The notes below the pieces were generated by a model. It was not told the DNA's origin. It saw only the letters and a program-made list of their open reading frames with translations, and made no database searches. A stretch of DNA of 58,798 nucleotides from an uncultured Pelagibacteraceae bacterium. Its GTDB lineage: Bacteria > Pseudomonadota > Alphaproteobacteria > Pelagibacterales > Pelagibacteraceae. Both the position numbers and the translations under genes were made by a program. Where the stretch lies: positions 1 through 58,798 of the forward strand of contig CACKBK010000005.1 in assembly GCA_902598425.1 (NCBI GenBank). The letters run 5' to 3'. This document shows, piece by piece, positions 12-27,871 of the stretch (position 1 is the stretch's first letter; each line of letters starts with the position of its first letter).

Positions 12-1874
12 TTAGTCTGTTTCTAATTGATCTAAAAGTACAGTAGAATACTTATTGCTACTTTTTAATTTATTATAGGCAACTTTAGTATTTCTACAAA
101 ATAATTGCATAGTTGAATCATTTCCTAACTCTGCAAGCTCTGTATTAGAATATGATGTACTAAAAAAACCTTGTTTAGTAAATTTAATTTTTTTACTTTT
201 TAAAATATTGCTTACTAATGGTGAAGCCACGGCAAAATTTACATTTTCAGGAACATAACCAGATTCTTTTGCCATTAGTAATTTATTTAATCCAGCTGAT
301 GCAATTCCTATCAATTCACCATTTACATTTAAAACAGGACCACCACTATTTCCCGGTTGAAGAGCAGCATCTATTTGAATTTGACCAATGTTGTTGTTTA
401 TCCCACTTAATGAACTAACTATACCTCTTGTTATTTTAACACTGTCACTTAATTTTCCAGCAAGAGGGTATCCAACAGCTATAACGTCTTCACCTAATTT
501 AGCTCCATCTTCATTTATTTTAATATAATTCTTAGATCTATAATCTGTTTTTAAAACTGCAACATCATTAGTTATGTCAGTCGCAATTACTTTAAACAAA
601 GTTTCTTCACCATTAATAACTGCAACAGTTTGCTTGCAAATTTCTATTACATGATTATTTGTCAAAGCATAACCTTGATTATTTATATAAAATCCACTTC
701 CACTTCCTATTGTAATTAATGAGCTATCTACTTCTGAAGATACTTTAGTTTTGGGTTTTTTTGCTTGAGCAGTCTTAGGTGGTTCTTCAACTGGTTTAAT
801 ATCCTCTAATTCTTTTGATGCATAAAGCCTTTTTGGTTTAAACATTATTGCACTGTAAATTTTTTTGTCCCCATTATTTACTGTTGCGTTTCTATTTTTC
901 CAATCAAAATCTACAAAAAAATTATTCTTTGTGTCTTCACGAGGTTTCATAATTTTAAAAGTCATTCTACTAGATGAATAAGGCTGCCAATGAATATAAT
1001 ATAATTTCTTTGAGTAAGCGTCAGATGCTTCATCAATCATACTAGAAGTTGTAACTCTTAAATTTCCATCATAAAAACCGTCCTCGTTTCTATCGTTAAG
1101 GAAGAATTTAAATTCATTTCCAATTTCTAAACCTTTGTTTATTAATGTTGCAGCTAAATCAATTGCTTTCTGCTTTTGATCTGCAATTCTTTTTTCCTCT
1201 TTTATTTTCTTTTTTTTATCTGCTCTTGCGGTTTTAATACTATAATCCTTATATGATACGTAAGCAGCGCCAGATACATTTTGATTTTTTCCATCGAAAT
1301 TGCCTGGAATCCTCTCGTTAAACACAAATTTTCTCGATCCAAATCCTGATCTGCAATAGTGATCTTCTAAATATATCCCCTTATCATAAATTTCAAATCC
1401 ACCACAAAATTTAATATTAAGAATGTTGTTATTAACATTTTTATTAAGATATTTTTTATACTGTTTATATTTTTTTTTTAAAAATTTATCTCTTATTTTG
1501 TCTTCTGTTTTTTCAGGCTTCTTAGTTGCATCAGAAATGAGATAATCAATAAATTTTTTCTTTGCATCGTCCAAATTTTTAGCACATATATATCTAATAT
1601 AATTTCTATCTTCTCCGATATATTTTCGCAACGGCACATAATCTGACAAAATATGGAATGTATCTTTTGATCTAGAAGAACAGTATTCAGTTGCGAGATA
1701 TGGATTCAATAAAAAATCTTTATTGTATCCCCAATTAGCCCAATTTTCATTGTTGGTATAAATCCAAATTTCATCCTCGTTTATACTTTCTACTTGTTCA
1801 AGCGCATTTGCTTTAAAGTTATTATTGATACTTAATATTATTAATAAAATTACGACCCAAAAAAGTCTTTTCAT
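12..1874 (-). CDS. Secreted trypsin-like serine protease (S1C/Deg-type) with long N-terminal region
   Basis: This is a 620-aa secreted serine endopeptidase. Residues 1-24 form a signal peptide ending in ANA. The C-terminal third is a trypsin-fold domain of the HtrA/Deg type: His408 in TNNHVIE, Asp437 in NDVAVLK and Ser510 in PGNSGGP make a complete catalytic triad. No PDZ domain follows, unlike DegP. Residues 25 to about 370 match nothing I recognise; they are rich in Lys, Asn and Tyr, hold several cysteines and include a charged helical stretch near 220-245. A periplasmic or surface quality-control role is likely but the substrate is unknown. The start is fixed by the signal peptide, and a TATAAT lies 6 bases before the ATG. 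tRNA-Glu is the nearest upstream gene. Confidence 0.85.
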   Translation of the reverse strand: MKRLFWVVILLIILSINNNFKANALEQVESINEDEIWIYTNNENWANWGYNKDFLLNPYLATEYCSSRSKDTFHILSDYVPLRKYIGEDRNYIRYICAKNLDDAKKKFIDYLISDATKKPEKTEDKIRDKFLKKKYKQYKKYLNKNVNNNILNIKFCGGFEIYDKGIYLEDHYCRSGFGSRKFVFNERIPGNFDGKNQNVSGAAYVSYKDYSIKTARADKKKKIKEEKRIADQKQKAIDLAATLINKGLEIGNEFKFFLNDRNEDGFYDGNLRVTTSSMIDEASDAYSKKLYYIHWQPYSSSRMTFKIMKPREDTKNNFFVDFDWKNRNATVNNGDKKIYSAIMFKPKRLYASKELEDIKPVEEPPKTAQAKKPKTKVSSEVDSSLITIGSGSGFYINNQGYALTNNHVIEICKQTVAVINGEETLFKVIATDITNDVAVLKTDYRSKNYIKINEDGAKLGEDVIAVGYPLAGKLSDSVKITRGIVSSLSGINNNIGQIQIDAALQPGNSGGPVLNVNGELIGIASAGLNKLLMAKESGYVPENVNFAVASPLVSNILKSKKIKFTKQGFFSTSYSNTELAELGNDSTMQLFCRNTKVAYNKLKSSNKYSTVLLDQLETD

Positions 1875-1880
1875 TATTTT

Positions 1881-1886
1881 ATTATA
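1881..1886 (-). promoter_or_regulatory. -10 box placed for a leaderless protease transcript
   Basis: On the minus strand TATAAT is followed by exactly 6 bases and then the ATG of the protease gene at 1874. At that spacing a sigma-70 transcript would begin at or next to the A of the start codon. No good -35 hexamer is visible, because the region 17 bases upstream is the GC-rich inverted repeat at 1892-1908. Confidence 0.45.
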
Positions 1887-1891
1887 TCATT

Positions 1892-1908
1892 GCGCCCACA
1901 GGGCGCCC
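1892..1908. repeat. GC-rich inverted repeat upstream of the protease promoter
   Basis: GCGCCC-ACA-GGGCGC is a perfect 6-bp stem with a 3-base spacer, and GGGCGCCC (1901-1908) is itself an 8-bp palindrome. It is strikingly GC-rich in an AT-rich setting. No T-run follows on either strand, so it is not a standard intrinsic terminator. It sits just upstream of the -10 box and could be an operator or an RNA hairpin after tRNA-Glu. Confidence 0.5.
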
Positions 1909-1943
1909 ATAGAGAATTTTTAAGCATTATTATTTAAATAAGT

Positions 1944-1961
1944 GTTGCTGTATCTAGCAAC
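1944..1961 (-). terminator. Weak hairpin just after tRNA-Glu
   Basis: GTTGCT and AGCAAC form a 6-bp stem with a 6-base loop, starting 4 bases past the encoded CCA of tRNA-Glu. The following bases on the minus strand (ACTTATTTAAAT) are AT-rich but not a T-run. It may end the tRNA transcript or serve as a processing signal. Confidence 0.3.
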
Positions 1962-1964
1962 TAG

Positions 1965-2039
1965 TGGCGGTCCCTAGGGGAATCGAACCCCTCTTTCATG
2001 GATGAAAACCATGTGTCCTAACCGATAGACGAAGGGACC
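1965..2039 (-). tRNA. tRNA-Glu (anticodon TTC)
   Basis: A full cloverleaf can be drawn: acceptor GGTCCCT/AGGGACC, anticodon stem CATGG/CCATG around the loop TTTTCAT with anticodon TTC, a T-arm with GGTTCGATTCC, discriminator G and encoded CCA. It lies 35 bases downstream of glpX on the same strand, so it may be partly co-transcribed with it. Confidence 0.95.
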
Positions 2040-2074
2040 AAACTCCGATCTTTTATTGTATAAAGATATCTTAA

Positions 2075-3022
2075 TCAAGTTTTTATAGTGTCCTCTTGTA
2101 CTAATATTTTATTTAAATTTGAGCTTTTATGAGTAATTAAAGTTTCTGTAATATACTTATTTCCTTTTATTTTTACCCCATTTACAAGATCACCCGATGT
2201 TATACCAGTTGCACAAAATATCGAGTCTCCTTTAATAATATCTTCTATCTCATATTTTTTACTAAAATCTGTAATACCCATAGTTTTAGCTCTATTGATG
2301 CTTTCTTTAGTATCAAATAAAAACTTACCCTGAAAATAACATCCAAGTGAGTCTAGCGCTGCAGCGGCTAGAACACCTTCGGGACCGCCGCCAATACCCA
2401 AAAATATATCGACTTTGTATTTTTTGTTAGACACAAGTAATGCACCTGAGACATCACCATCACTTATAAGTTTTATTTTAACTTTTAGTTCTTTTAATTT
2501 ATCAATTATTTTTTTATGTCTTGGCCTATCTAAAATACATGCTGTCAATTGTTTTATGTCTTTATTTAAGAATTCAGCTAAATTTTTAATATTTTTTTCC
2601 GTATCAAAGTCGATATCTACAATTCCTTTTTGGTTTGTATTTATAGCAATTTTATTCATATATGTTTCAGGTGCATGAAACAAGTTATTAACTTTTGAAA
2701 CAGCAATTACAGATAATGCACCAGGCAAATTATTAGCAGCAAAATTTGTGCCTTCAAGTGGATCAACGGCTATATCTAAGTCTGGACCTTTGCCATTTCC
2801 TAATTTTTCACCTATATATAACATTGGTGCTTCATCTAATTCACCCTCACCAATCACTATTGTACCTCTCATGCTAATTTTATTTAGTTCGCTTCTCATA
2901 TTATCTACAGCTGCCTTATCTGCGGCTTTTTTATCTTTTTTACCCAAATAAGGAATTGTTGAAATTGCTGCTCTTGAGGTAATTTTTGCAAATAGATTTA
3001 TATATTTTTCGTCTAAACTCAT
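2075..3022 (-). CDS. glpX: Fructose-1,6-bisphosphatase class II
   Basis: This 315-aa cytoplasmic enzyme removes the 1-phosphate of fructose 1,6-bisphosphate in gluconeogenesis. Class II (GlpX) hallmarks are present: GEGELDEAPML at 58-68, the metal and phosphate motif DPLEGT at 87-92, and GGGPEGVLAAAA near 210-220. Length is typical for the family. Its ATG overlaps the end of the upstream transporter gene by 4 bases, so the two are translated together. In some bacteria GlpX also acts on sedoheptulose bisphosphate; the sequence does not decide this. Confidence 0.95.
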   Translation of the reverse strand: MSLDEKYINLFAKITSRAAISTIPYLGKKDKKAADKAAVDNMRSELNKISMRGTIVIGEGELDEAPMLYIGEKLGNGKGPDLDIAVDPLEGTNFAANNLPGALSVIAVSKVNNLFHAPETYMNKIAINTNQKGIVDIDFDTEKNIKNLAEFLNKDIKQLTACILDRPRHKKIIDKLKELKVKIKLISDGDVSGALLVSNKKYKVDIFLGIGGGPEGVLAAAALDSLGCYFQGKFLFDTKESINRAKTMGITDFSKKYEIEDIIKGDSIFCATGITSGDLVNGVKIKGNKYITETLITHKSSNLNKILVQEDTIKT

Positions 3023-4014
3023 TGAGCTTGTGTTTCAATTTTATTTTGAGCTTTTAATTTAGCCTCAAACTCACTGAGTCTTTTCCAAACAGAAATTAAT
3101 TCTACTATAATTGGCCAACTTCTAACTAAATATTGTAATGATGTTTCAACACGTCCAAAGGCTCTTATAATTTGTTGAACAAATCCTAATGTAATAGCAC
3201 CTGTTACAATTGTAGGAGCTAAAGCCAAATATGGAACAATTACCATACCTTGAAGATAGCTCCATTTTACAGCATTAAAATATAAATAATGAAAGTACAT
3301 TTTATAATGTATTTTTCTTACACCTCCATAAAGATCTGTTATTCTTTGTGGTTTCGCATTCTCTTTAAAGTCTTCACCTAAAACTAATTCTTTTCTATAT
3401 GCAGCCTCCTCTTTTTGAATATCGTATTCAATTCCAGGAAGTTTGATACCTACTGATGCTAAAAGCACTGTCCCTCCTAGCGCTGATATAATTGCAACCC
3501 AAACTAAAGCATGTTCAACTTCGCCAATCCATGGGAGTACTGTTATACTTTTTGAAAGCTCCCACAATATTGGAGTAAAAGCTATCAAGGTCATTAAGCT
3601 ACGCAACAATTCAGCACCTAAACCCTCCATTATTCTTGCAAATTTTAAAGTATCTTCTTGAACTCGTTGGGAAGCTCCCTCTATTGAGGATGCTTTATCC
3701 CAGGCATCATGATAAAAATCTGCCATTGCAGTTCTCCATCTAAAAGTCCAATGGCTAGTAAAATAATCACTGAAAATTACAACCAAAATATAGACTGCAG
3801 CAATTTTTGCAAATGTGAATAAATAAGCAATAAACTCTTTTTCTGAAACAGCACCTGGTTCAGCTAAAGCCTTTTGTAAAGTATCATAAAATTCACCAAA
3901 CCACTCATTAATTCTGACGTCCAATGAAACCTGATACCAAGTTGCAAATAAAATGAGGAGTGTTCCTCCTATACTCCAAGTAAACCACCTTTTATCTGTA
4001 AAAAATTTGAACAT
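3019..4014 (-). CDS. SbmA/BacA-like inner-membrane transporter
   Basis: This 331-aa integral membrane protein resembles the SbmA/BacA family, which imports antimicrobial peptides and related bulky solutes in a proton-dependent way and supports very-long-chain lipid modification in rhizobia. Supporting stretches are HWTFRWRTAMADFYHDAW, PGIEYDIQKEEAAYRKELVLGED and RWSYLQG-like sequence followed by the FGRVETSLQYLVRSWP block. It is shorter than E. coli SbmA (about 400 aa) and seems to lack the first membrane segments, as short SbmA-like members do. It overlaps glpX by 4 bases and the NDUFS4-like gene by 1. The substrate cannot be told from sequence. Confidence 0.8.
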   Translation of the reverse strand: MFKFFTDKRWFTWSIGGTLLILFATWYQVSLDVRINEWFGEFYDTLQKALAEPGAVSEKEFIAYLFTFAKIAAVYILVVIFSDYFTSHWTFRWRTAMADFYHDAWDKASSIEGASQRVQEDTLKFARIMEGLGAELLRSLMTLIAFTPILWELSKSITVLPWIGEVEHALVWVAIISALGGTVLLASVGIKLPGIEYDIQKEEAAYRKELVLGEDFKENAKPQRITDLYGGVRKIHYKMYFHYLYFNAVKWSYLQGMVIVPYLALAPTIVTGAITLGFVQQIIRAFGRVETSLQYLVRSWPIIVELISVWKRLSEFEAKLKAQNKIETQAQ

Positions 4015-4295
4015 TATTTAATAAAATTATCTGAGTAAGATTTTTTGTTAACCTTTTTTATTTTTGGTTCAATTACTTCATAATCTAATTTATTTTTCTT
4101 TGCATATTTAATGGCATTTTCTTTATTGGTAAATTCTAACTTAACTTCAGAAAGTGTATGGGTTGAACTTTCCCATCCCATTAATGGATTTACTCCACTT
4201 TTTTTTGATATAAATTCTAATATCCAACTTTTAGTTTTTCCTAACCCAGATTGCATGGACGTTTTAGCTGGTTTATAAATTTTTACTTTATTCAT
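4014..4295 (-). CDS. NDUFS4-like complex I accessory subunit
   Basis: This 93-aa protein matches the ETC complex I conserved region (NDUFS4 family): PLMGWESSTHTLSEVKLEFTNKENAIKYAKK is the core of that domain. In alphaproteobacteria and mitochondria this peripheral subunit binds the NADH dehydrogenase arm of respiratory complex I. There is no signal peptide or membrane segment, which fits the cytoplasmic arm. The nuo operon is not in the window. The ATG lies only 7 bases past the CCA end of tRNA-Pro, so its message probably arises from the tRNA transcript. Confidence 0.85.
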   Translation of the reverse strand: MNKVKIYKPAKTSMQSGLGKTKSWILEFISKKSGVNPLMGWESSTHTLSEVKLEFTNKENAIKYAKKNKLDYEVIEPKIKKVNKKSYSDNFIK

Positions 4296-4302
4296 AATTT
4301 AA

Positions 4303-4379
<77 letters not shown>

Positions 4380-4462
4380 AGATGAATACTAATATAGTAG
4401 ATAATGTGAATTTCAAAGGATAAATAATAGCAAATTTGAAGAATTTTAAATAAAATCTGCTA

Positions 4463-4468
4463 TATAAA
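4463..4468 (+). promoter_or_regulatory. -10-like box close to the zinc-ribbon gene start
   Basis: TATAAA is followed by 5 bases and then the ATG at 4474. The spacing suits a transcript with no leader or a 1-2 base leader. No Shine-Dalgarno sequence is present. Confidence 0.35.
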
Positions 4469-4473
4469 TAAGT

Positions 4474-4902
4474 ATGATAATTACATGTCCTTGTGAAAAG
4501 AAACAATTTGAAATTGACGACAAATTAATACCGGAAAAAGGAAAATTATTACAGTGTGGTTCATGTGATCGTAAATGGTTTTTCAAAAAGACTATTGAAG
4601 TAAAAAAAAAAATTGAAAGAATATCTACAAAAACAAAAACTAACAAAATACCCAAAGAAACCGAAGATATTATAATTGAAGCAGAGAAAAATAATTCAAA
4701 AGTAGAAAATTTAAAAAAAATTAACTTACCAATTTTAAATTTACTTTTAATTACATTGATTAGTTTTGCTGCATTAATAATATTTTTAGATACCTTTAAA
4801 ATTCAAATAAATAATTTTGTTCCTGGTTTTGAATTTTTGCTTGAAAATTTCTATGAAACTCTTAAAGATTTCTATTTATTTACAATAGATTTAATAAAGT
4901 AA
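4474..4902 (+). CDS. MJ0042-type zinc-ribbon single-span membrane protein
   Basis: This 142-aa protein begins with a small zinc-ribbon: Cys5 and Cys7 (CPC) pair with Cys28 and Cys31 (CGSC), the pattern of MJ0042-type zinc-finger domains common at the N-terminus of alphaproteobacterial membrane proteins. A charged Lys/Glu linker follows (about 40-85), then one membrane segment near 86-107. The zinc-ribbon would be cytoplasmic. The cellular role is not known. Its stop codon overlaps the nhaA start by 1 base, so the two genes form a small operon. Confidence 0.7.
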   Translation: MIITCPCEKKQFEIDDKLIPEKGKLLQCGSCDRKWFFKKTIEVKKKIERISTKTKTNKIPKETEDIIIEAEKNNSKVENLKKINLPILNLLLITLISFAALIIFLDTFKIQINNFVPGFEFLLENFYETLKDFYLFTIDLIK

Positions 4903-6074
4903 TGATAAATTATATCTCAAAACCATTCAAATGGTTCTTTAAACTAGAAGCAGCTAGCGGGCTAGTTTTATTATTCAGCGCAATATTTGCTTTAATTATC
5001 AGTAACTCTTCATATGCTGATTTGTATTTTTCAACTTTAGAAAAATATTTATTTATTGGATTTAATGAAATTGGTTTGAAGCTAAGTATATTGCATTGGA
5101 TTAATGATGCTTTAATGGCCATCTTTTTCTTTTTTGTTACACTTGAAATTAAAAGAGAATTTTTACAAGGCGAGCTTTCTAATTTTAAACAAGCATTGTT
5201 ACCAATAATTGCTGCAATCGGGGGAATGGTTGTACCTGCCCTATTTTACGTTATTATAAATTTTGGAGACCCGGAAACTTTGAACGGTTGGGCAATTCCA
5301 TCTGCAACTGATATCGCTTTCTCTTTAGGAGTTTTGTCATTACTTGGAAAAAGAGTACCTATATCCCTTAAAGTTTTTTTAACTGCTCTAGCTATTATTG
5401 ATGACTTAGGTGCTATTTTAATAATTGCTATATTTTATTCTGGTGATCTAAATATTGTTTATCTATCTTTAATGTCTATTGCTTTTATTTTATTATTATT
5501 AATTAATAAATTTAACATAAAGAAATTTTTACCATACCTAATAGTTGGTTTAGCGCTATGGGACTTTACTCACAATTCTGGAATTCATGCAACAATAGCG
5601 GGCGTACTTTTAGCAATGACAATTCCACATAGAAAAAAAGAAAAAGATTTTTCTTTACTTTTAAAAATTGAACACGCAATAAGTCCCTATGTTGCTTTTG
5701 GTATAATGCCGTTATTTGCATTTGCTAATGCAGGTGTCTCATTAGAAGGCTTATCTTTTTCATCGTTGATGGATAAGGTACCCTTAGGAATTGTTTTAGG
5801 TTTATTTGTCGGTAAACAATTAGGAGTATTTGTTTTTTCATATGTTTCAATAAAATTAAAAATTGCTCAAATGCCAAACAATTCAAACTGGTTTAATTTT
5901 TATGGTGTTGGTATTTTAACAGGAATAGGTTTCACCATGAGTTTATTCGTTGGTAATTTAGCTTTTGTTGAAAATATGCAATACATGGACGGTGTTAAAA
6001 TTGGAGTTTTAACTGGGTCACTATTATCCACTTTAGCTGGATACTTTCTGATATTACTTACACCAAATAAATAA
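4902..6074 (+). CDS. nhaA: Na+/H+ antiporter NhaA
   Basis: This 390-aa, roughly 12-span inner-membrane protein exchanges sodium for protons in pH and salt homeostasis. The hallmark ion-binding pair Asp167-Asp168 in LAIIDDLGAILI aligns with Asp163/164 of E. coli NhaA. GFTMSLFVGNLAF near the C-terminus and IPSATDIAFSLGVL before the Asp pair are also family blocks. Length matches the family. It is translationally coupled to the zinc-ribbon gene and followed 9 bases later by the glutathione peroxidase gene. Confidence 0.97.
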   Translation: MINYISKPFKWFFKLEAASGLVLLFSAIFALIISNSSYADLYFSTLEKYLFIGFNEIGLKLSILHWINDALMAIFFFFVTLEIKREFLQGELSNFKQALLPIIAAIGGMVVPALFYVIINFGDPETLNGWAIPSATDIAFSLGVLSLLGKRVPISLKVFLTALAIIDDLGAILIIAIFYSGDLNIVYLSLMSIAFILLLLINKFNIKKFLPYLIVGLALWDFTHNSGIHATIAGVLLAMTIPHRKKEKDFSLLLKIEHAISPYVAFGIMPLFAFANAGVSLEGLSFSSLMDKVPLGIVLGLFVGKQLGVFVFSYVSIKLKIAQMPNNSNWFNFYGVGILTGIGFTMSLFVGNLAFVENMQYMDGVKIGVLTGSLLSTLAGYFLILLTPNK

Positions 6075-14980: not shown

Positions 14981-15047
14981 AATAACAAATGAAATAAACT
15001 ATTTTATTCTTGAAATATATATTAATAATCGTAAAACACTTGCATAC

Positions 15048-15086
15048 GGAGAGATGGCTGAGCGGTTGAAAGCACCGGTCTTGAAA
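15048..15086 (+). pseudogene. 5' half of tRNA-Ser (attachment-site remnant)
   Basis: These 39 bases are identical to bases 1-39 of the intact tRNA-Ser gene at 18181 and stop inside the anticodon loop (after TTGAAA). Two further bases upstream also match. No 3' half follows. The bases before it (AAAACACTTGCATAC) resemble those before the intact gene (AAAACCTTGCTAAC), so promoter-side sequence is duplicated too. I read this as the left attachment site of the island. Confidence 0.85.
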
Positions 15087-15202
15087 TACTAAGGATCCCC
15101 TACTCACCTTACGACGATTCACATACTTATTAAGCCATTACTTACTTTTTCAATTTTAGCTTATACGAAAAACGCATCATTATTGGTTTGCCTAAGCTAA
15201 GA

Positions 15203-15223
15203 AACTAGAAACTAACTAGAAAC
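15203..15223. repeat. Left copy of 21-base direct repeat flanking the R-M genes
   Basis: This is a near-complete tandem pair of the 11-mer AACTAGAAACT, lying 9 bases beyond the stop of the specificity gene. The same 21 bases recur at 18084-18104 upstream of the methylase gene. Such short tandem repeats near an att site resemble arm-type recombinase binding sites. Confidence 0.85.
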
Positions 15224-15232
15224 TAATATTAA

Positions 15233-16213
15233 TTAAATTTCCTTAGATAGATTCATTATTGATTTATCTAATTCAATATTAAAAATTTCTAAAGTTTTAG
15301 AACTTATAGAACTTAAGTTGGGAATTTTTAATGAAGGTAGTGTTTTATTAGCCTGCCTGTTATAATTAAATCTATAGCTATTCATCTTAATAAAGTAACA
15401 ATAGGTTAATAATTCAAAATTTGTCATTTTTATTTTAGGATATAGAATATATAAATCTCTTCCTGAATAGAATTCTTCATCTTGTAGAAATGTTTCACCT
15501 ACAGAGCCACCAGCAGCTATTGTAAGAACGGGTGGTTTAATAGTTTCTATATTTGAAAGTTTTTTAACTTTTCCAGAAATACCATTATTATTATTTGTTC
15601 TCGAAACAAAGTTTATCCCATCTTTAGACTCTTCTAATTTATTAAACTCCAAATTTGTTCCATAGACAACATCAAATAAACTATCCAATCTTACATTGAT
15701 TATTTTTGTTTCATTTGGATAAATTTTACTATTTGAATTTTTTATATTTTTTAATAAGTCTTTTTTATTAGAAATAAATGATGGTTGCTTTACCCAATTT
15801 GGGATATCTTGAGGGTCAGGCAAAAGCAAATCTCCAAAAGTTCTGTCTGCCTGTCTATTGTAGTTAAATCTAAATTTATTCTCTCTTATGCAATAACAGT
15901 AATATATTTTTTCTAAATTTGTTAAATTAGAATATTTTTCTTTCGGATACAAAATAGCTATTTGATGTGCAATATAAAAATCTTCGGTTTGTAAAAAAGC
16001 ATGAAGAACTGTTCCTTTTAATGGGACAGTTATTGCTCCACTATTATAGATTTTATAACCTTCTCTTTTTTCTACTTTGCCAACAATACCGTTATTTTTT
16101 TCTCCTGAACTAATAAAGTTTATTCCATTAATATTTTCTTTGAATTCATTATAAATAGTTGTTTTGGGTTTAATTATTTCAAAAATTTCTGATAATTTTA
16201 ATTTTTCACTCAT
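15233..16213 (-). CDS. Specificity (S/B) subunit of the R-M system
   Basis: This 326-aa protein is a DNA-recognition subunit of the HsdS kind. It is an internal duplication: RFNYNRQA occurs at 115-122 and again at 281-288, each closing a half with INFxS...GxxGKV...FY...ILYP. Each half is one target-recognition domain followed by a helical spacer, so a bipartite target site is expected. It is shorter than typical type I HsdS (about 400 aa) and close to the specificity subunit of BcgI-type enzymes. It overlaps the methylase-nuclease gene by 8 bases. The NYNRQA blocks are well kept, so it does not look decayed. Confidence 0.87.
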   Translation of the reverse strand: MSEKLKLSEIFEIIKPKTTIYNEFKENINGINFISSGEKNNGIVGKVEKREGYKIYNSGAITVPLKGTVLHAFLQTEDFYIAHQIAILYPKEKYSNLTNLEKIYYCYCIRENKFRFNYNRQADRTFGDLLLPDPQDIPNWVKQPSFISNKKDLLKNIKNSNSKIYPNETKIINVRLDSLFDVVYGTNLEFNKLEESKDGINFVSRTNNNNGISGKVKKLSNIETIKPPVLTIAAGGSVGETFLQDEEFYSGRDLYILYPKIKMTNFELLTYCYFIKMNSYRFNYNRQANKTLPSLKIPNLSSISSKTLEIFNIELDKSIMNLSKEI

Positions 16214-18050
16214 TAATTTTATATTTTATAAATTCTTTTATTACTTGTGAAAATTCTTCTTCATTAATATTTGAATAATCAGTATCCATATAAGGTTCTA
16301 TACACCATTCGTCATTTGCTGTAATTCTCTTGGTTAAGCTACTAAATGTCTTTGTTGAGCCTTTGATAACCTTCCTATTAATGTAAGCGTTAATCCATTT
16401 TTTTTTAATACCGTTCCATTTATTATCAAAATCATTTCTACCTCTATGTCTTTTTATGTAAAAACCATCATCCTTACAATATCCAAACCATGTTTCAAAA
16501 TTATCAGGATGAGGTTTATGTGCTTTAAAAAATGCAAGACAAGTAACTGTACCTACCTTTGTTCCAAAAAGTTGATTTGGAAGTGACATAACTGCTAACA
16601 ATGTATGATTTTTTAATATTTCATTTTTATAATCAGATGGATTTGTAACTCTACCCATTGGTAATATAACTATACCAACGCCTTCAGGTTCTAAAATTTC
16701 AAGCATATTAAGTACATACGATAATTCATGAAGATCTTCATCTTTTTGAGAAAATGGCGGATTAATTAAACCATATTTTGGTTTATGACTTTTAAGTGAT
16801 TTTTTTATATTTGTATCGAAGCTATCTCCTTGATAAAGATTTGATTTTCCATCTCCTCTCAAGATCATATTTCCGACAGATAGGGTAAACATGTCAGGCA
16901 TATCCTCACATCCGATAAGATTTTGAGATAAAATTTTTCTTAATTCTACTTTTGAATTAGCTTTTTTCTTCATCTCCTGCATGGCAGCAATTAAGAAACC
17001 TCCTGTGCCACAACAGGTATCAATAACTTTGGTTGAATGATCTAAATTAAGAATTTCAGCACAAAATTCAGTTATATGTTTTGGGGTTAAAACTATTCCG
17101 AAGGACTGTTGATCACCACCACTGTATTTTAAAAATTCATTATAAAATTGACCGATCAAATCATAATTTTTTAATACTTGTATATAAGGAAAAACATTAT
17201 CTTTTATTAAGTTAATTAGTTGATAAAAAACACCTCCACTAAATTTTTTACTAGGTCTTATAAAGGCAGGATTATCTCTGATTGATAAAAAAGAATTAAG
17301 TATTATTTCTTTTTTTTTAACATTAGGAATATTTGCATTTTCAATTTCTTTCTTGAGAGATGCAAACCAAAATTTAGGAATTTTTTTGAAATTTAATTTT
17401 CTGTAATTATGTCTAAAATTTTCATTTTTAAGAGCAATCAATATACCACAAATAGAAAGTGGTTTTTGTTGTTCAGACAATTTTCCATAATCTCTTAAAA
17501 ATTCATGTAAACTCCTTGAAAAGGATAATATATCTACTAATTTTAATTTTGCTTCATCTTCATCATAACCAGCAATATCTACTAGTTCATCGAATGGTAA
17601 AAAGTTTTGAATTATTTTATTTAAAGAATTTTTAAGTGGTTGAATAGATTTACCTTTTTTTTGAACAAAGGATGATATTAATAGATTTTTTTTAGTAGTA
17701 CCAGTAACAGCAAAAGAAATTACATTAAAAGCTTTCGAAAGAAATTTAGAATAGTGAATTAATCCATCTACATTATAATCTTTGGGCTTATCTAAAGTTT
17801 TACTTTCATGAAACTTTAAGTTTGGTTTACATTCAATTATTATTAAAAATTGTGGAAATGCTTTACTTGTAATAATAAACTCAGGATAGCCTTTCCCCTT
17901 TTTTCCACTTTTGCTCGCCCCTTGTAATAATTTCTTAATATTTGTGAAGTCTGATGTTTGTTCTTCAACTTTTATAATACTATCCTTTTCAAAATAGTTA
18001 TTTTGAAGAAGTAAATCTCTTACAATTTTTTCAGTTTTTCGTTCAGACAT
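16206..18050 (-). CDS. Restriction-modification fusion subunit (nuclease + N6-adenine methylase), BcgI-like
   Basis: This 614-aa protein joins two activities. The N-terminal part has a PD-(D/E)xK-like pattern, Pro56-Glu57 and then Glu73-Cys-Lys75 (PEFII...IIIECKP), as in HsdR N-terminal nuclease domains. The central and C-terminal parts are a type I-like gamma N6-adenine methylase: motif I DTCCGTGGF at 344-352 and motif IV NPPF at 430-433. With the S subunit next door and no separate hsdR, the layout is that of BcgI-type (IIB) systems. An orphan methylase with a dead nuclease domain is the main alternative. It is transcribed opposite to tRNA-Ser. Confidence 0.85.
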   Translation of the reverse strand: MSERKTEKIVRDLLLQNNYFEKDSIIKVEEQTSDFTNIKKLLQGASKSGKKGKGYPEFIITSKAFPQFLIIIECKPNLKFHESKTLDKPKDYNVDGLIHYSKFLSKAFNVISFAVTGTTKKNLLISSFVQKKGKSIQPLKNSLNKIIQNFLPFDELVDIAGYDEDEAKLKLVDILSFSRSLHEFLRDYGKLSEQQKPLSICGILIALKNENFRHNYRKLNFKKIPKFWFASLKKEIENANIPNVKKKEIILNSFLSIRDNPAFIRPSKKFSGGVFYQLINLIKDNVFPYIQVLKNYDLIGQFYNEFLKYSGGDQQSFGIVLTPKHITEFCAEILNLDHSTKVIDTCCGTGGFLIAAMQEMKKKANSKVELRKILSQNLIGCEDMPDMFTLSVGNMILRGDGKSNLYQGDSFDTNIKKSLKSHKPKYGLINPPFSQKDEDLHELSYVLNMLEILEPEGVGIVILPMGRVTNPSDYKNEILKNHTLLAVMSLPNQLFGTKVGTVTCLAFFKAHKPHPDNFETWFGYCKDDGFYIKRHRGRNDFDNKWNGIKKKWINAYINRKVIKGSTKTFSSLTKRITANDEWCIEPYMDTDYSNINEEEFSQVIKEFIKYKINE

Positions 18051-18083
18051 ATAAAGTTATTATTATATAGGATTCTATAGGAC

Positions 18084-18104
18084 AACTAGAAACTAACTAG
18101 AAAC
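18084..18104. repeat. Right copy of 21-base direct repeat, in the methylase upstream region
   Basis: It is identical to 15203-15223 and again built of two AACTAGAAACT-like units. It starts 33 bases upstream of the methylase ATG, so it could also serve as an operator for the R-M genes. Together the two copies bracket the R-M module exactly. Confidence 0.85.
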
Positions 18105-18180
18105 AAAATTAATATTTCTTTAAAAAATAACACTGTTTTTTAGTTGAATTTAAATATTTTACTTATAAAACCTTGCTAAC

Positions 18181-18270
18181 GGAGAGATGGCTGAGCGGTT
18201 GAAAGCACCGGTCTTGAAAACCGGCAAAGGGGCAACTCTTTCCTGGGTTCGAATCCCAGTCTCTCCGCCA
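18181..18270 (+). tRNA. tRNA-Ser (anticodon TGA)
   Basis: The complete 90-base class II tRNA has acceptor GGAGAGA/TCTCTCC, anticodon stem CCGGT/ACCGG around CTTGAAA (anticodon TGA), a long variable arm, T-arm GGTTCGAATCC, discriminator G and encoded CCA. Its first 39 bases are repeated at 15048. Its upstream region belongs to the island, so its promoter may be island-borne. The last base abuts the stop of sdhE on the other strand. Confidence 0.97.
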
Positions 18271-25292: not shown

Positions 25293-27871
25293 TATATTAA
25301 ATTATCATCAATTTTAATTGCCGATACTACTTTTTCATCCCCTGTTAACTTTATTATTCTCACACCTTGGGTATTTCTACCAGCAACTCTAATTTCTTTC
25401 ACGGCTACTCTGATAACTCTTCCTTTATTAGTTGATATTAAAATTTCATCACCTTCATTTACAGAAAAAGATGAGGAGACATTTCCATTTCGCTTAGAAT
25501 TCACAATGCCGATTATTCCCTTTCCTCCTCTATTTGTAACTCTAAAATCATGGTCTAATGTTCTTTTGCCGTATCCATTTTCTGTGATGGATAAAATAAA
25601 TTTTTCTTTTGCTTTAGTTTCTAAAGCTTCATCTTTGCTTTTCTTTTTTGAGTTTTTCTCCTCATTATGTTGAATTATAGATAAAGAAACTACTTCATCG
25701 TTTTCAGCTAGATTCAATCCTCTAATACCTTTTGAAGACCTTCCTTTAAAAACCCTAAGTTTTTTTGACTCAAATCTAATGCATTTTCCAAACTTGGTAC
25801 TTAAAATAATGTCTTGATCATTTTTGCAAATCTTTACACCTATAATTCTGTCGTTATTATCTAATTTCATTGCAATTTTACCAGAGGCATTTATAGATGA
25901 AAAATCATCCAAACTATTTTTTCTTATTTTGCCCTTGCTTGTTGCAAAAACTATATGCATATCACCTATTTTTTCTTTTTCTTCAGGAAAAGGCATTATT
26001 GAACTTATAGATTGGTGATTTTTAAGAGGTAATATATTAAACAATGATTTACCTTTAGATGCAGATGTGCCCTCAGGTATTTTCCATGCTTTGATTTTGT
26101 ATACTAGACCTTCAGTAGAGAAAAATAAAACTGATGTGTGTGTATTTACAGATAGAGTTTGTACAACAGAATCTTCTTGTCGTGTTTTTATACCTGCTTT
26201 TCCCTTCCCGCCTCTTTTTTGTTGTTTAACCGAACTTAATGATCCTCTTTTTATGTAGCCTTGTAAAGTCACTGTTATCAAAACAGATTCTTTCTGAATT
26301 GTTTCTTCAATATCATAATTCAAGACAGCATCTATAATTTTAGTTCTTCTTGGAACTGAAAATTTTTCTTTAATAGCCTTAAGCTCACTACTTATTACAT
26401 TCATTAATTCTTTTTTTGAGTTAATTATTTTTTTAAATTGAGCTATAAGATCTGAAAGTTTTTTTATTTCTACTTCTATCTCATTGATACCTAAAGCTGT
26501 AAGTTTTTGTAATCTTAATTCTAATATAGAATTGATTTGTATATCAGTAAGACTATATGAACTTTTTGAATTTTTTCCTTCAATCATTTTTATAAATTTC
26601 ATTGATTTATTAATTTTCCATTTTATTTTCGATAATTCTTTTTTTGCATCATCAGGTGTTTTTGATGATCTGATTACTTTTATAACTTTATCTAAATTTT
26701 CAACTGAAACTGATAACCCAATTAAAACATGTGCTCTATCTTCTGCTTTTTTTAAATCATGTTTTGTTTTTTTAATGACGACATCTTCTCTAAATTTTAA
26801 AAAATGATCTATAAAATCTTTGAGGTTACATGTTTTGGGTTTTTGATCTACAATAGCTAGAGTATTAAATCCAAACGAGCTTTCTATTGAAGTATACTTA
26901 TACAATTGTCTTTTAACAGTTTCTGGCTCAACACCTCTTCTTAAGTCAATTGCAACTCTAACACCTTCTCTATTTGACTCGTCACGAATATCGCTAATAC
27001 CCTCAATCTTTTTTTCTCTGACAAGTTCTACAATTCTTTCATTGAGTGATGATTTGTTAACCTGATAAGGTATTGATGTTATAACAATTCTTTCTTTTCC
27101 ATTAGTTCTTTGCTCTATTTTAATTTCTCCCCTAATTTTAAATGAGCCTCTTCCATTTTTATAACCTTCTTTAATTATATTTTTTCCTATTATTGTTCCA
27201 CCAGTTGGAAAATCTGGCCCAGGAATATGTTTCATTAATTCGTTTATTTTTATATCTCTGTTATTAATGAAAGCTAAAGTACCATCTATCACTTCTCCAA
27301 GATTGTGAGGAGGAATACTTGTTGCCATACCAACAGCTATACCACCAGCACCATTTACTAATAAATTTGGATATTGCGCAGGCAAAACAACAGGCTCTTT
27401 TTCGGTTTCATCGTAGTTGCTCTTAAAATTTACAGTTTCTTTATCAATATCGTCGATTAAAAACTGTGAAATTTTTGCAAGTTTTGTCTCTGTATATCTC
27501 ATGGCTGCTGGAGGGTCTCCATCAATAGATCCAAAATTTCCCTGACCATCTATAAGAGGAAGGCTCATTGAAAATTCTTGTACCATTCTTACCAAAGCAT
27601 CGTAAACAGCTTGATCACCATGAGGATGATATTTACCTATTACATCACCAACAATTCTTGCTGATTTTCTAAATTGTTTTGACCAATCGAAACCTCCTTT
27701 ATGCATAGCATATATAATTCTTCTATGAACAGGTTTGAGACCGTCCCTAACATCAGGAAGAGCTCGACTTACAATTACACTCATTGCATATGATAGATAA
27801 GATGAGCTCATCTCATCATACATAGCTATGGGTTTTATATTATTGTTTTTAATTTTTTCAATTTCTGGCAT
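25292..27871 (-). CDS. gyrA: DNA gyrase subunit A
   Basis: This 859-aa protein is the DNA-cleaving subunit of gyrase. The catalytic tyrosine is Tyr126 in AMRYTETK; the QRDR-like helix [17 protein letters not shown] precedes it, with Gln and Asp near the Ser83/Asp87 area. The C-terminal six-bladed pinwheel includes the GyrA box QQKRGGKGK. An acidic C-terminal tail is absent. A Lys/Glu-rich insert near 720-740 separates two blades. Confidence 0.98.

What the first reader, a model, noticed from the sequence alone, without database searches (positions are those of the whole stretch)
15047..18270. Integrase-free island carrying a BcgI-like restriction system in tRNA-Ser(UGA)
A 39-base 5' half of tRNA-Ser, ending in the anticodon loop, marks the left edge; the intact tRNA stands at the right edge. 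Between them are only a nuclease-methylase fusion and an S subunit. This looks like a tiny cargo-only integrative element that would depend on a recombinase encoded elsewhere. Such streamlined tRNA-targeted cargo elements carrying defence genes would be a noteworthy system for a small-genome marine bacterium.
Basis: partly seen in the sequence, partly recalled or inferred. Interest (0 to 1): 0.82.

Follow-up and report, generated by a model that had tools for sequence, protein, structure and literature searches.

The report
Integrase-free cargo islands of SAR11 bacteria
A small DNA island with a restriction system sits in a serine tRNA gene of an ocean SAR11 bacterium; it belongs to a family of islands that carry cargo but no enzyme to move themselves, and seem to be moved by recombinases made by rarer helper elements that recognise a short repeated address at their ends.

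Summary
A 41-nt block ending in the anticodon loop of tRNA-Ser(TGA) is duplicated around a BcgI-like restriction-methylase fusion and its S subunit. Two close relatives have the empty site with nearly the same left flank; 87 of 100 genus genomes with a readable locus are empty. The same tRNA carries other cargo, with no integrase recognised, in dozens of Pelagibacteraceae genomes. Shared ends: a ~115-nt left end, a right end that resupplies the tRNA promoter region, and at each end a tandem pair of 11-bp repeats. The repeat differs between elements but matches at both ends of one element (33 of 35; shuffles mean 4). One 3.1-kb element is 99.5% identical in two genomes with 76.5% identical flanks, the identity stopping at the tRNA. 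Rare ~8-10 kb satellites at this tRNA or tRNA-Leu carry tyrosine integrases whose N-terminus folds like arm-type binding domains. For three of four, the repeat address equals that of cargo-type elements at the same tRNA. The window's address equals that of a tRNA-Leu satellite. Mobilisation in trans is inferred, not shown.

The parts
15046..15086 (+). left copy of the tRNA-Ser 5' half (39 nt, plus 2 shared upstream nt), ending in the anticodon loop: left attachment junction, with the chromosome's own promoter region upstream
15087..15202 (+). conserved left-end module (ends ...TTGCCTAAGCTAAGA); part of model R1
15203..15226 (+). left arm repeats: tandem pair of 11-bp units, address AACTAGAAAC
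15233..16213 (-). specificity (S) subunit, 326 aa, Methylase_S / Specificity_II
16206..18050 (-). restriction nuclease-methylase fusion, 614 aa, REase_MTase_IIG
18068..18083 (.). conserved right-end block (window form TAGGATTCTATAGGAC; family form TAGGATTTTATAGGAY); on the - strand it is promoter-like in front of the cargo gene (inferred)
18084..18107 (+). right arm repeats: same 11-bp pair as on the left
18108..18178 (+). element-borne replacement promoter region of the tRNA gene
   Evidence: promoter function inferred
18181..18270 (+). intact tRNA-Ser(TGA): 5' half supplied by the element, 3' half by the chromosome; right attachment junction

Best explanation
The island (about 3.13 kb, 15087-18219) is a non-autonomous integrative element. 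Its ends form an attP: right arm repeats, a spare promoter region and 5' half of tRNA-Ser, the crossover in the anticodon loop (CTTGAAA), the left-end module, and left arm repeats. A tyrosine integrase made elsewhere binds the 11-bp arm repeats with its N-terminal domain and recombines attP with the tRNA gene. The element then rebuilds the tRNA and leaves the displaced 5' half as the left scar. The integrase comes from rare ~8-10 kb satellites that insert in the same way and are seldom resident. Cargo (here a BcgI-like restriction system) is passive freight, read from a promoter-like block beside the right arm. Shown: anatomy, empty sites, shared ends with diverse cargo, a near-identical whole element in divergent hosts with edges at the tRNA, helper integrases and their arm repeats. 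Inferred: catalysis in trans, a circular intermediate, recognition of the 11-bp address by the integrase, and the route between cells.
For: Empty sites in two close relatives and in 87 of 100 genomes. Same half-tRNA, left end and right end around unrelated cargo. Left and right arm addresses match in 33 of 35 non-redundant complete elements (34 of 35 within one base; 20,000 shuffles mean 3.95, max 13), or 11 of 12 distinct addresses (mean 1.09, max 6). Fixed distance from the right-end block to the crossover core at each target, in the 30 of 53 places fetched: 149 nt in 14 of 14 tRNA-Leu, 142 in 4 of 4 tRNA-Ser, 113-115 in 10 of 12 at the third target, two unread. A 3,140-nt element is 99.5% identical in two genomes with flanks at 76.5%, with sharp edges at the tRNA. 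Helper satellites: G326 at the same tRNA, G120, G168 and G202 at tRNA-Leu; phrog_1 integrase E 6.5e-15, PF00589 in 3 of 5 at E<=1 with best 3.2e-10, tyrosine-recombinase fold. The N-terminal model's best matches are three arm-type binding domains, Z 8.3, 7.7 and 7.6, the next at 4.2. Helper addresses equal those of cargo-type elements at the same tRNA for 3 of 4 helpers.
Against: No excised or circular form was seen. The window genome (75% complete) has no match to the helper integrases. In the two genomes where a helper lies beside a cargo element (G326, G202) the two addresses differ, so no matched pair was seen in one genome. The window's address was found in a helper of tRNA-Leu (G168), not in one of tRNA-Ser. 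The G202 helper's address matched no cargo element seen. One of 35 elements (14.7 kb, G326) has unlike addresses at its ends. Two filled sites (L105, L108) lack the left half. Some records are labelled MAG and the AG- names are, as I recall, single-cell amplified genomes, where chimeras occur. The Foldseek E values for the arm-binding fold are weak (0.017-0.027).
Confidence: 0.82

Rival explanations
1. The islands are decayed descendants of the satellites: each arrived with its own integrase and lost it in place. The ends are relics and the cargo is stranded.
For: Helpers and cargo elements share targets, arm repeats and partly homologous left ends.
Against: The right-end block TAGGATTTTATAGGAY is common to cargo elements at three targets but absent from the right ends of the four readable helpers. 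The integrase search reads through stop codons, and the only genomes both in its list of 6 and in the left-end list of 26 are G326 and G168. Near-identical elements in divergent hosts point to movement in the integrase-free state, and the arm pairs stay matched.
Confidence: 0.1
2. Homologous recombination or transformation swaps whole rarD-sdhE regions, and tRNA duplications are by-products.
For: SAR11 recombines often (general knowledge); host genes flank the site.
Against: In the pair compared, identity begins at the half tRNA on the left and ends just past the tRNA on the right. The arm geometry is fixed at three unrelated targets.
Confidence: 0.03
3. The 11-bp pairs are operators or replication iterons of the cargo, not integrase arm sites; the elements are moved by an unrelated recombinase that reads only the tRNA core.
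For: The right pair lies just upstream of the cargo's promoter-like block. Iterons and operators can also be short tandem repeats (general knowledge).
Against: Pairs sit at both ends, the right one at fixed distance from the crossover, also in satellites that encode an integrase with an arm-binding-like fold. The 251-nt cargo-less element of G132 keeps one pair.
Confidence: 0.05

Closest known systems
Tycheposons of Prochlorococcus and similar marine elements (Hackl et al. 2023: recalled, not read; named in passages of PMC10872708, PMC12416821, PMC11389934)
   Same: Marine streamlined hosts, tRNA targets, a divergent tyrosine recombinase, cargo-bearing forms and satellite-like forms.
   Different: Cargo islands here are mostly 1-7.5 kb (33 of 35; median 2.1 kb; one of 0.25 and one of 14.7 kb) and carry no recognised recombinase. 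PMC10872708 (passages) gives 4-200 kb and a tyrosine recombinase as marks of tycheposons. Relation of the integrases was not tested.
Hitchers that lost their mobility gene: MITEs and CALIN cassette arrays (PMC11389934, passages)
   Same: No mobility gene of their own; moved, or thought to be moved, in trans by a relative's enzyme through conserved ends.
   Different: These carry whole operons, go site-specifically into tRNA genes or an ORF start, and rebuild the target. Their recognition repeats vary between elements in matched pairs.
Cis-mobilisable elements (CIMEs) of integrative conjugative elements (recalled)
   Same: Flanked by att sites, no integrase, mobilised by an element using the same att site.
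   Different: CIMEs move by accretion with an adjacent ICE in cis. Here most islands stand without a helper beside them, form a family with its own ends, and the helper is a satellite in which no conjugation gene was recognised.
PICI/P4-like phage satellites (for the helpers)
   Same: ~8-10 kb, integrase, small HTH-like gene, primase-helicase; no capsid gene recognised (5 of 8 listed G326 proteins searched in PHROGs); N-terminal fold like the arm-binding domain of P4-like integrases.
   Different: Integrase has no match at E<=1e-3 in 50,697 phage records. Packaging by a phage is untested.
ssrA islands of Dehalococcoides (PMC3146451, passages)
   Same: Tandem arrays at one RNA gene with diverse cargo between part-gene repeats.
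   Different: Serine recombinase, encoded in 16 of those islands; repeat of the 3' end of the gene.

Membership tests
tRNA-integrated genomic island | intact target gene on one side and partial gene copy on the other, absent from the empty site | tested here: met
tRNA-integrated genomic island | own integrase gene | tested here: not met
   only two long genes in the island, neither an integrase
non-autonomous (trans-mobilised) element | autonomous relatives with the same ends and a recombinase | tested here: met
   G326 helper at the same tRNA with a related left end; 3 of 4 readable helper addresses equal those of cargo-type elements at the same tRNA
non-autonomous (trans-mobilised) element | movement in trans observed | not testable with these tools
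   needs an excision or integration assay
tyrosine integrase with arm-binding domain (helper) | tyrosine-recombinase fold with catalytic R, R and Y | tested here: met
   R365, R498, Y531 invariant in 5 of 5 (catalytic roles assigned by eye); fold Z up to 15.8; phrog_1
tyrosine integrase with arm-binding domain (helper) | N-terminal arm-type DNA-binding fold | tested here: met
   Z 8.3, 7.7, 7.6 to three arm-binding domains, next 4.2; Foldseek E only 0.017-0.027; model pLDDT 75.9; binding itself not tested
tycheposon | tycheposon-type tyrosine recombinase and hallmark genes | not tested
   no tycheposon sequence was compared
phage satellite (helper) | packaging or induction by a helper phage | not testable with these tools
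   no relative of the integrase found in viral contigs
BcgI-like type IIB restriction system (cargo) | nuclease-methylase fusion with a separate S subunit | tested here: met
   (PADLOC names it type IIG; the nuclease motif was read by eye)
BcgI-like type IIB restriction system (cargo) | cleavage on both sides of a bipartite site | not testable with these tools
   no assay; direct similarity to BcgI was not measured; NCBIfam gave only a sub-threshold MAD2 match

The most novel reading that the evidence does not exclude
SAR11 bacteria share a cassette exchange system. Integrase-free cargo cassettes at three or more chromosomal targets are moved by rarely resident satellite integrases. A variable 11-bp address, the same at both ends of a cassette, decides which helper may move it. 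Addresses spread between targets by module exchange (the window's address sits on tRNA-Ser cassettes, on cargo-type elements at tRNA-Leu and on a tRNA-Leu helper). A cassette may swap its cargo, or its helper, while keeping its ends, as the cargo-free 251-nt element suggests.
Probability: 0.45. Interest if true: 0.88.

Novelty: new variant of a known kind. Interest (0 to 1): 0.78.

Why it matters
SAR11 is among the most abundant bacteria in the sea and is known for small, streamlined genomes (general knowledge). How it gains and loses defence and nutrient genes is largely open. A family of mostly 1-7 kb integrase-free cassettes with a readable address, whose right end is found by one exact pattern in 45 of 300 genus genomes, would be a concrete route. 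Among the cargo looked at are several kinds of restriction system, a STAND protein family, a caspase-domain protein and a glycosyltransferase-phosphoesterase-lipid kinase set. The address also makes helper and cargo pairs predictable from sequence, so the idea can be tested.

Tried and rejected
Viral search: two exact patterns for the half tRNA followed by a non-tRNA base gave 0 viral contigs. The right-end pattern gave 1 viral contig, which ends 9 nt further on, so its repeats cannot be read. The helper integrase found no relative in viral contigs or phages. So no helper phage was identified.

Structured RNA in the left end: the consensus fold of 6 sequences had 0 pairs. It is treated as a DNA site.

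The window genome's own PF00589 protein as helper: it lies on another contig in a 325-aa frame, and neither the helper integrase nor its profile matched the genome. Not supported, not excluded.

Left ends in other genera: 12 of 297 family-level genomes matched R1. The 7 strong ones are all of the window's genus; other genera gave only E 1e-5 to 6e-4. G488 shows a CCTAAGCTA plus repeat-pair motif, not followed further. Order-level helpers: 1 of 147 at E<=1e-10, the known G202.

Address avoidance in tandem arrays: I considered that stacked elements must differ in address. Read by hand, most neighbours differ (G171, L228, L055, G326, G202) but L269 and L222 share; from the address frequencies I reckon about 0.11 matches per pair by chance, so this is no evidence either way.

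Arm statistics: 76 rows. 29 partial rows were left out (an end off the stretch or not recognised by my rule), 10 duplicates by end sequence removed, 37 complete; 2 more copies of the 3,210-nt element were dropped. L231, L238 and L248 gave no row. L158/13528 and L175 failed my rule because their two tandem units differ at more than one base; by eye their ends are alike. L244 and L247 failed too. The rule reads only ACT-type pairs (or CT-type pairs with identical units) and compares the best copy with the best copy.

One search used a careless pattern that over-matched; it is not used.

An OCS116 record with a tRNA-Ser half (L248) shows no such left end or repeats by eye and was set aside.

Literature: eight searches listed no paper that, by title and start of abstract, describes these elements. 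Passages of four papers were seen; the rest only as listings. Only the held open-access library was searched and Hackl et al. 2023 was not listed there, so I make no wider claim.

Absent matches in the fold searches are not used as evidence. The weak profile matches (G036, G062, G161, G248) were not followed.
Full report
Observation. The window holds an intact tRNA-Ser(TGA) at 18181-18270 and a copy of its first 39 nt at 15048-15086; with two shared upstream bases the identical block is 41 nt. Between them are two minus-strand genes: an S subunit (326 aa) and a nuclease-methylase fusion (614 aa, a full-length match to a REase_MTase_IIG model, E 2.8e-111). The genome is a 915,646-base draft in 38 contigs, 75% complete. 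I call the host SAR11/Pelagibacteraceae because the elements of relatives lie in records so titled.

Insertion. In the two closest relatives, G042 and G034, rarD and the tRNA are 68 nt apart, and the sequence upstream of the tRNA is nearly that of the window's left flank, not its right one. So the left half is the chromosome's own 5' half and the right-hand 5' half, with its upstream region, was brought by the element. Of 151 genus genomes searched with SdhE, 100 matched. All 100 loci were read. 87 are empty (rarD to tRNA 63-160 nt), 6 are filled, 6 have no rarD on the stretch read (among them the window's own), and 1 has no tRNA. Four of the 6 filled loci (G080, G089, G124, G132) carry the 39-nt left half. 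Two (G094, G019) do not, although G094 has the family's right end.

A family with constant ends and variable cargo. The four relatives hold unrelated cargo: an MmeI-like enzyme, an Eco57I/PglX-like methylase with a PLD/SNF2 helicase, small ORFs, and nothing at all (a 251-nt element). Their left ends are alike, G080's being the most divergent. A sequence-only model of that end (R1) matched 26 of 399 genus genomes at E<=0.001; G168 and G290 are weak and I do not count them. In 297 family-level genomes 12 matched; the 7 strong ones are all of the same genus. Taken together 29 genomes have a strong match. 27 of them show the tRNA-Ser half before it; G169 is cut by its contig end and G340 has only a degenerate trace. 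Of the 24 strong loci newly read, rarD lies upstream in 21, not always next to the element; it is not on the stretch in G021, G180 and G169. A pattern for the junction found 43 stretches in GTDB genomes, 42 in Pelagibacteraceae or Pelagibacterales records and one in an OCS116 record that I set aside. G171 has three elements in tandem; L228 and L269 have two, and G124 has one behind a remnant. Other cargo includes type III and type I restriction genes, an NB-ARC STAND family, an HNH protein, a caspase-domain protein, a MORN-repeat protein, and a glycosyltransferase, metallophosphoesterase and lipid-kinase set. About 20 of the cargo proteins were searched in Pfam and 10 in PADLOC, besides the window's two, so no enrichment is claimed.

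The address. The elements have a tandem pair of 11-bp units near both ends, mostly AAACT followed by six variable bases at tRNA-Ser. In the window the unit is AACTAGAAAC plus one base, at 15203-15226 and 18084-18107 and nowhere else in the draft as an exact pattern. Among 35 non-redundant complete elements, the six variable bases are the same at both ends in 33 (best copy against best copy) and within one base in 34. 20,000 shuffles gave a mean of 3.95 and a maximum of 13. With one element per distinct address, 11 of 12 match, against a mean of 1.09 and a maximum of 6. The exception is the 14.7-kb element of G326. Related elements are not fully independent. Rows left out are told under Tried and rejected.

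Other targets. The right-end block TAGGATTTTATAGGAYAAC occurs in 45 of 300 genus genomes at 53 places; the control (pattern read backwards) is 0 in all rows. Of the 30 places fetched, 14 lie at tRNA-Leu(TAA), 12 at the start of a conserved ORF of about 75 codons, and 4 at tRNA-Ser. The distance to the crossover core is fixed for each target: 149, 113-115 (two unread) and 142 nt.

Movement. The 3,140-nt element in AG-390-A23 and AG-422-C13 is 99.5% identical, while flanking sequence is 76.5% identical over 3,677 nt. Frequent mismatches stop at the start of the half tRNA on the left and resume just after the tRNA on the right. A third copy (G570) is 99.2-99.5% identical to these; its flanks are 93.8 and 77.0% identical to theirs. 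Five further pairs met the coverage limit: in three the element is more alike than the flanks by 14 to 17 points (89.8 against 74.6, 90.9 against 73.5, 83.6 against 69.0), in one less (90.1 against 93.6), and one, within a single genome, had no flank comparison.

Helpers. In G326 a second left end at the same tRNA is followed by a 558-aa protein, a 169-aa protein, a HTH-like protein (HTH_17, E 0.012, below cut-off), and further ORFs including a 751-aa protein with primase (AEP) and DUF5906 matches. It ends at the intact tRNA after about 9.1 kb. No capsid gene was recognised; 5 of the 8 listed proteins were searched in PHROGs. The 558-aa protein is a tyrosine integrase (phrog_1, E 6.5e-15; fold Z up to 15.8). 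It and its relatives occur in 6 of 399 genus genomes. In a 300-genome genus sample, with the same handles as as far as listed, a profile matched 9: 4 full-length, one broken into pieces, 4 weak. G120, G168 and G202 lie at tRNA-Leu(TAA); G158 lies just before a tRNA-Ser(GCT). The N-terminal domain, folded alone, has the arm-type binding domains of HPI, P4-like and HAI7 integrases as its best matches (Z 8.3, 7.7, 7.6; next 4.2). Foldseek ranks the same three first, but with E values of only 0.017-0.027.

Matching addresses. G326 helper: TGAGAC, equal to elements of G132 (cargo-free), G341 and L237 at tRNA-Ser. G168 helper: AGAAAC, equal to stacked elements with the cargo-type right end in G010 at tRNA-Leu (1.5 kb or less on either side was read, and G010 had no integrase match), and to the window, L243 and L268 at tRNA-Ser. 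G120 helper: ACCAGCACA, equal to a cargo element of G202 at tRNA-Leu with five listed ORFs and no integrase. G202 helper: GGTTCCACAC, no match seen. G158: not readable. In G326 and G202 the helper and the cargo next to it differ in address.

How it works, step by step. Shown: insertion at the tRNA, shared ends, matched repeats, a near-identical element in divergent hosts, existence of helpers with arm-binding-like integrases and shared addresses. Inferred: the helper integrase recognises the repeats, excises and integrates the cargo element through a circle, and helpers are visitors rather than residents (6 of 399 against 26 of 399 for cargo ends at one target). The route between cells is unknown. 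The promoter-like block beside the right repeats suggests that cargo expression could be affected by integrase binding; this is speculation.

Known or new. Non-autonomous elements are known in other forms (MITEs, CALINs: PMC11389934, passages; CIMEs: recalled). Tycheposons are the nearest marine kin by habitat, target and recombinase type (passages of PMC10872708; original paper not read); membership was not tested. I rate the family a new variant of a known kind.

Noticed in passing
G000 contig C12: locus L006:463-603 (-), and 25778-26308 of the contig: The genome's only PF00589 match (325-aa frame) lies within about 1 kb of an IMES-2 RNA (Rfam RF02035, 151.8 bits).
   Followed up: no
L199, L206, L210, L211, L215, L217, L218, L221, L224, L226: Third target: the start of a conserved ~75-codon ORF (KLWKIIQEAGDYL...), whose first codons and upstream region seem to be supplied by the inserted element.
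   Followed up: partly
L161, L171, L242 (AG-390-A23, G570, AG-422-C13): Cargo of glycosyltransferase, calcineurin-like phosphoesterase and lipid kinase, which recalls the lipid remodelling of phosphate-starved SAR11 (function recalled).
   Followed up: partly
L195 (G202), 1419-5075: Six pilin-like genes with near-identical N-termini lie upstream of the tRNA-Leu cargo element and its helper (pilin-like by eye).
   Followed up: no
L079 (G132, AG-909-C05): A cargo-free element of 251 nt: left end, one repeat pair and right end only.
   Followed up: partly
L074 (G145), 4640-5730 of the oriented locus: About 1 kb of extra sequence between the tRNA-Ser and sdhE, on the other side of the tRNA from the elements described.
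   Followed up: no
L176/L183 (G488, other genus of the family): A CCTAAGCTA motif followed by a repeat pair near a contig end, beside a sequence that reads like part of a tRNA: possible family member in another genus.
   Followed up: no
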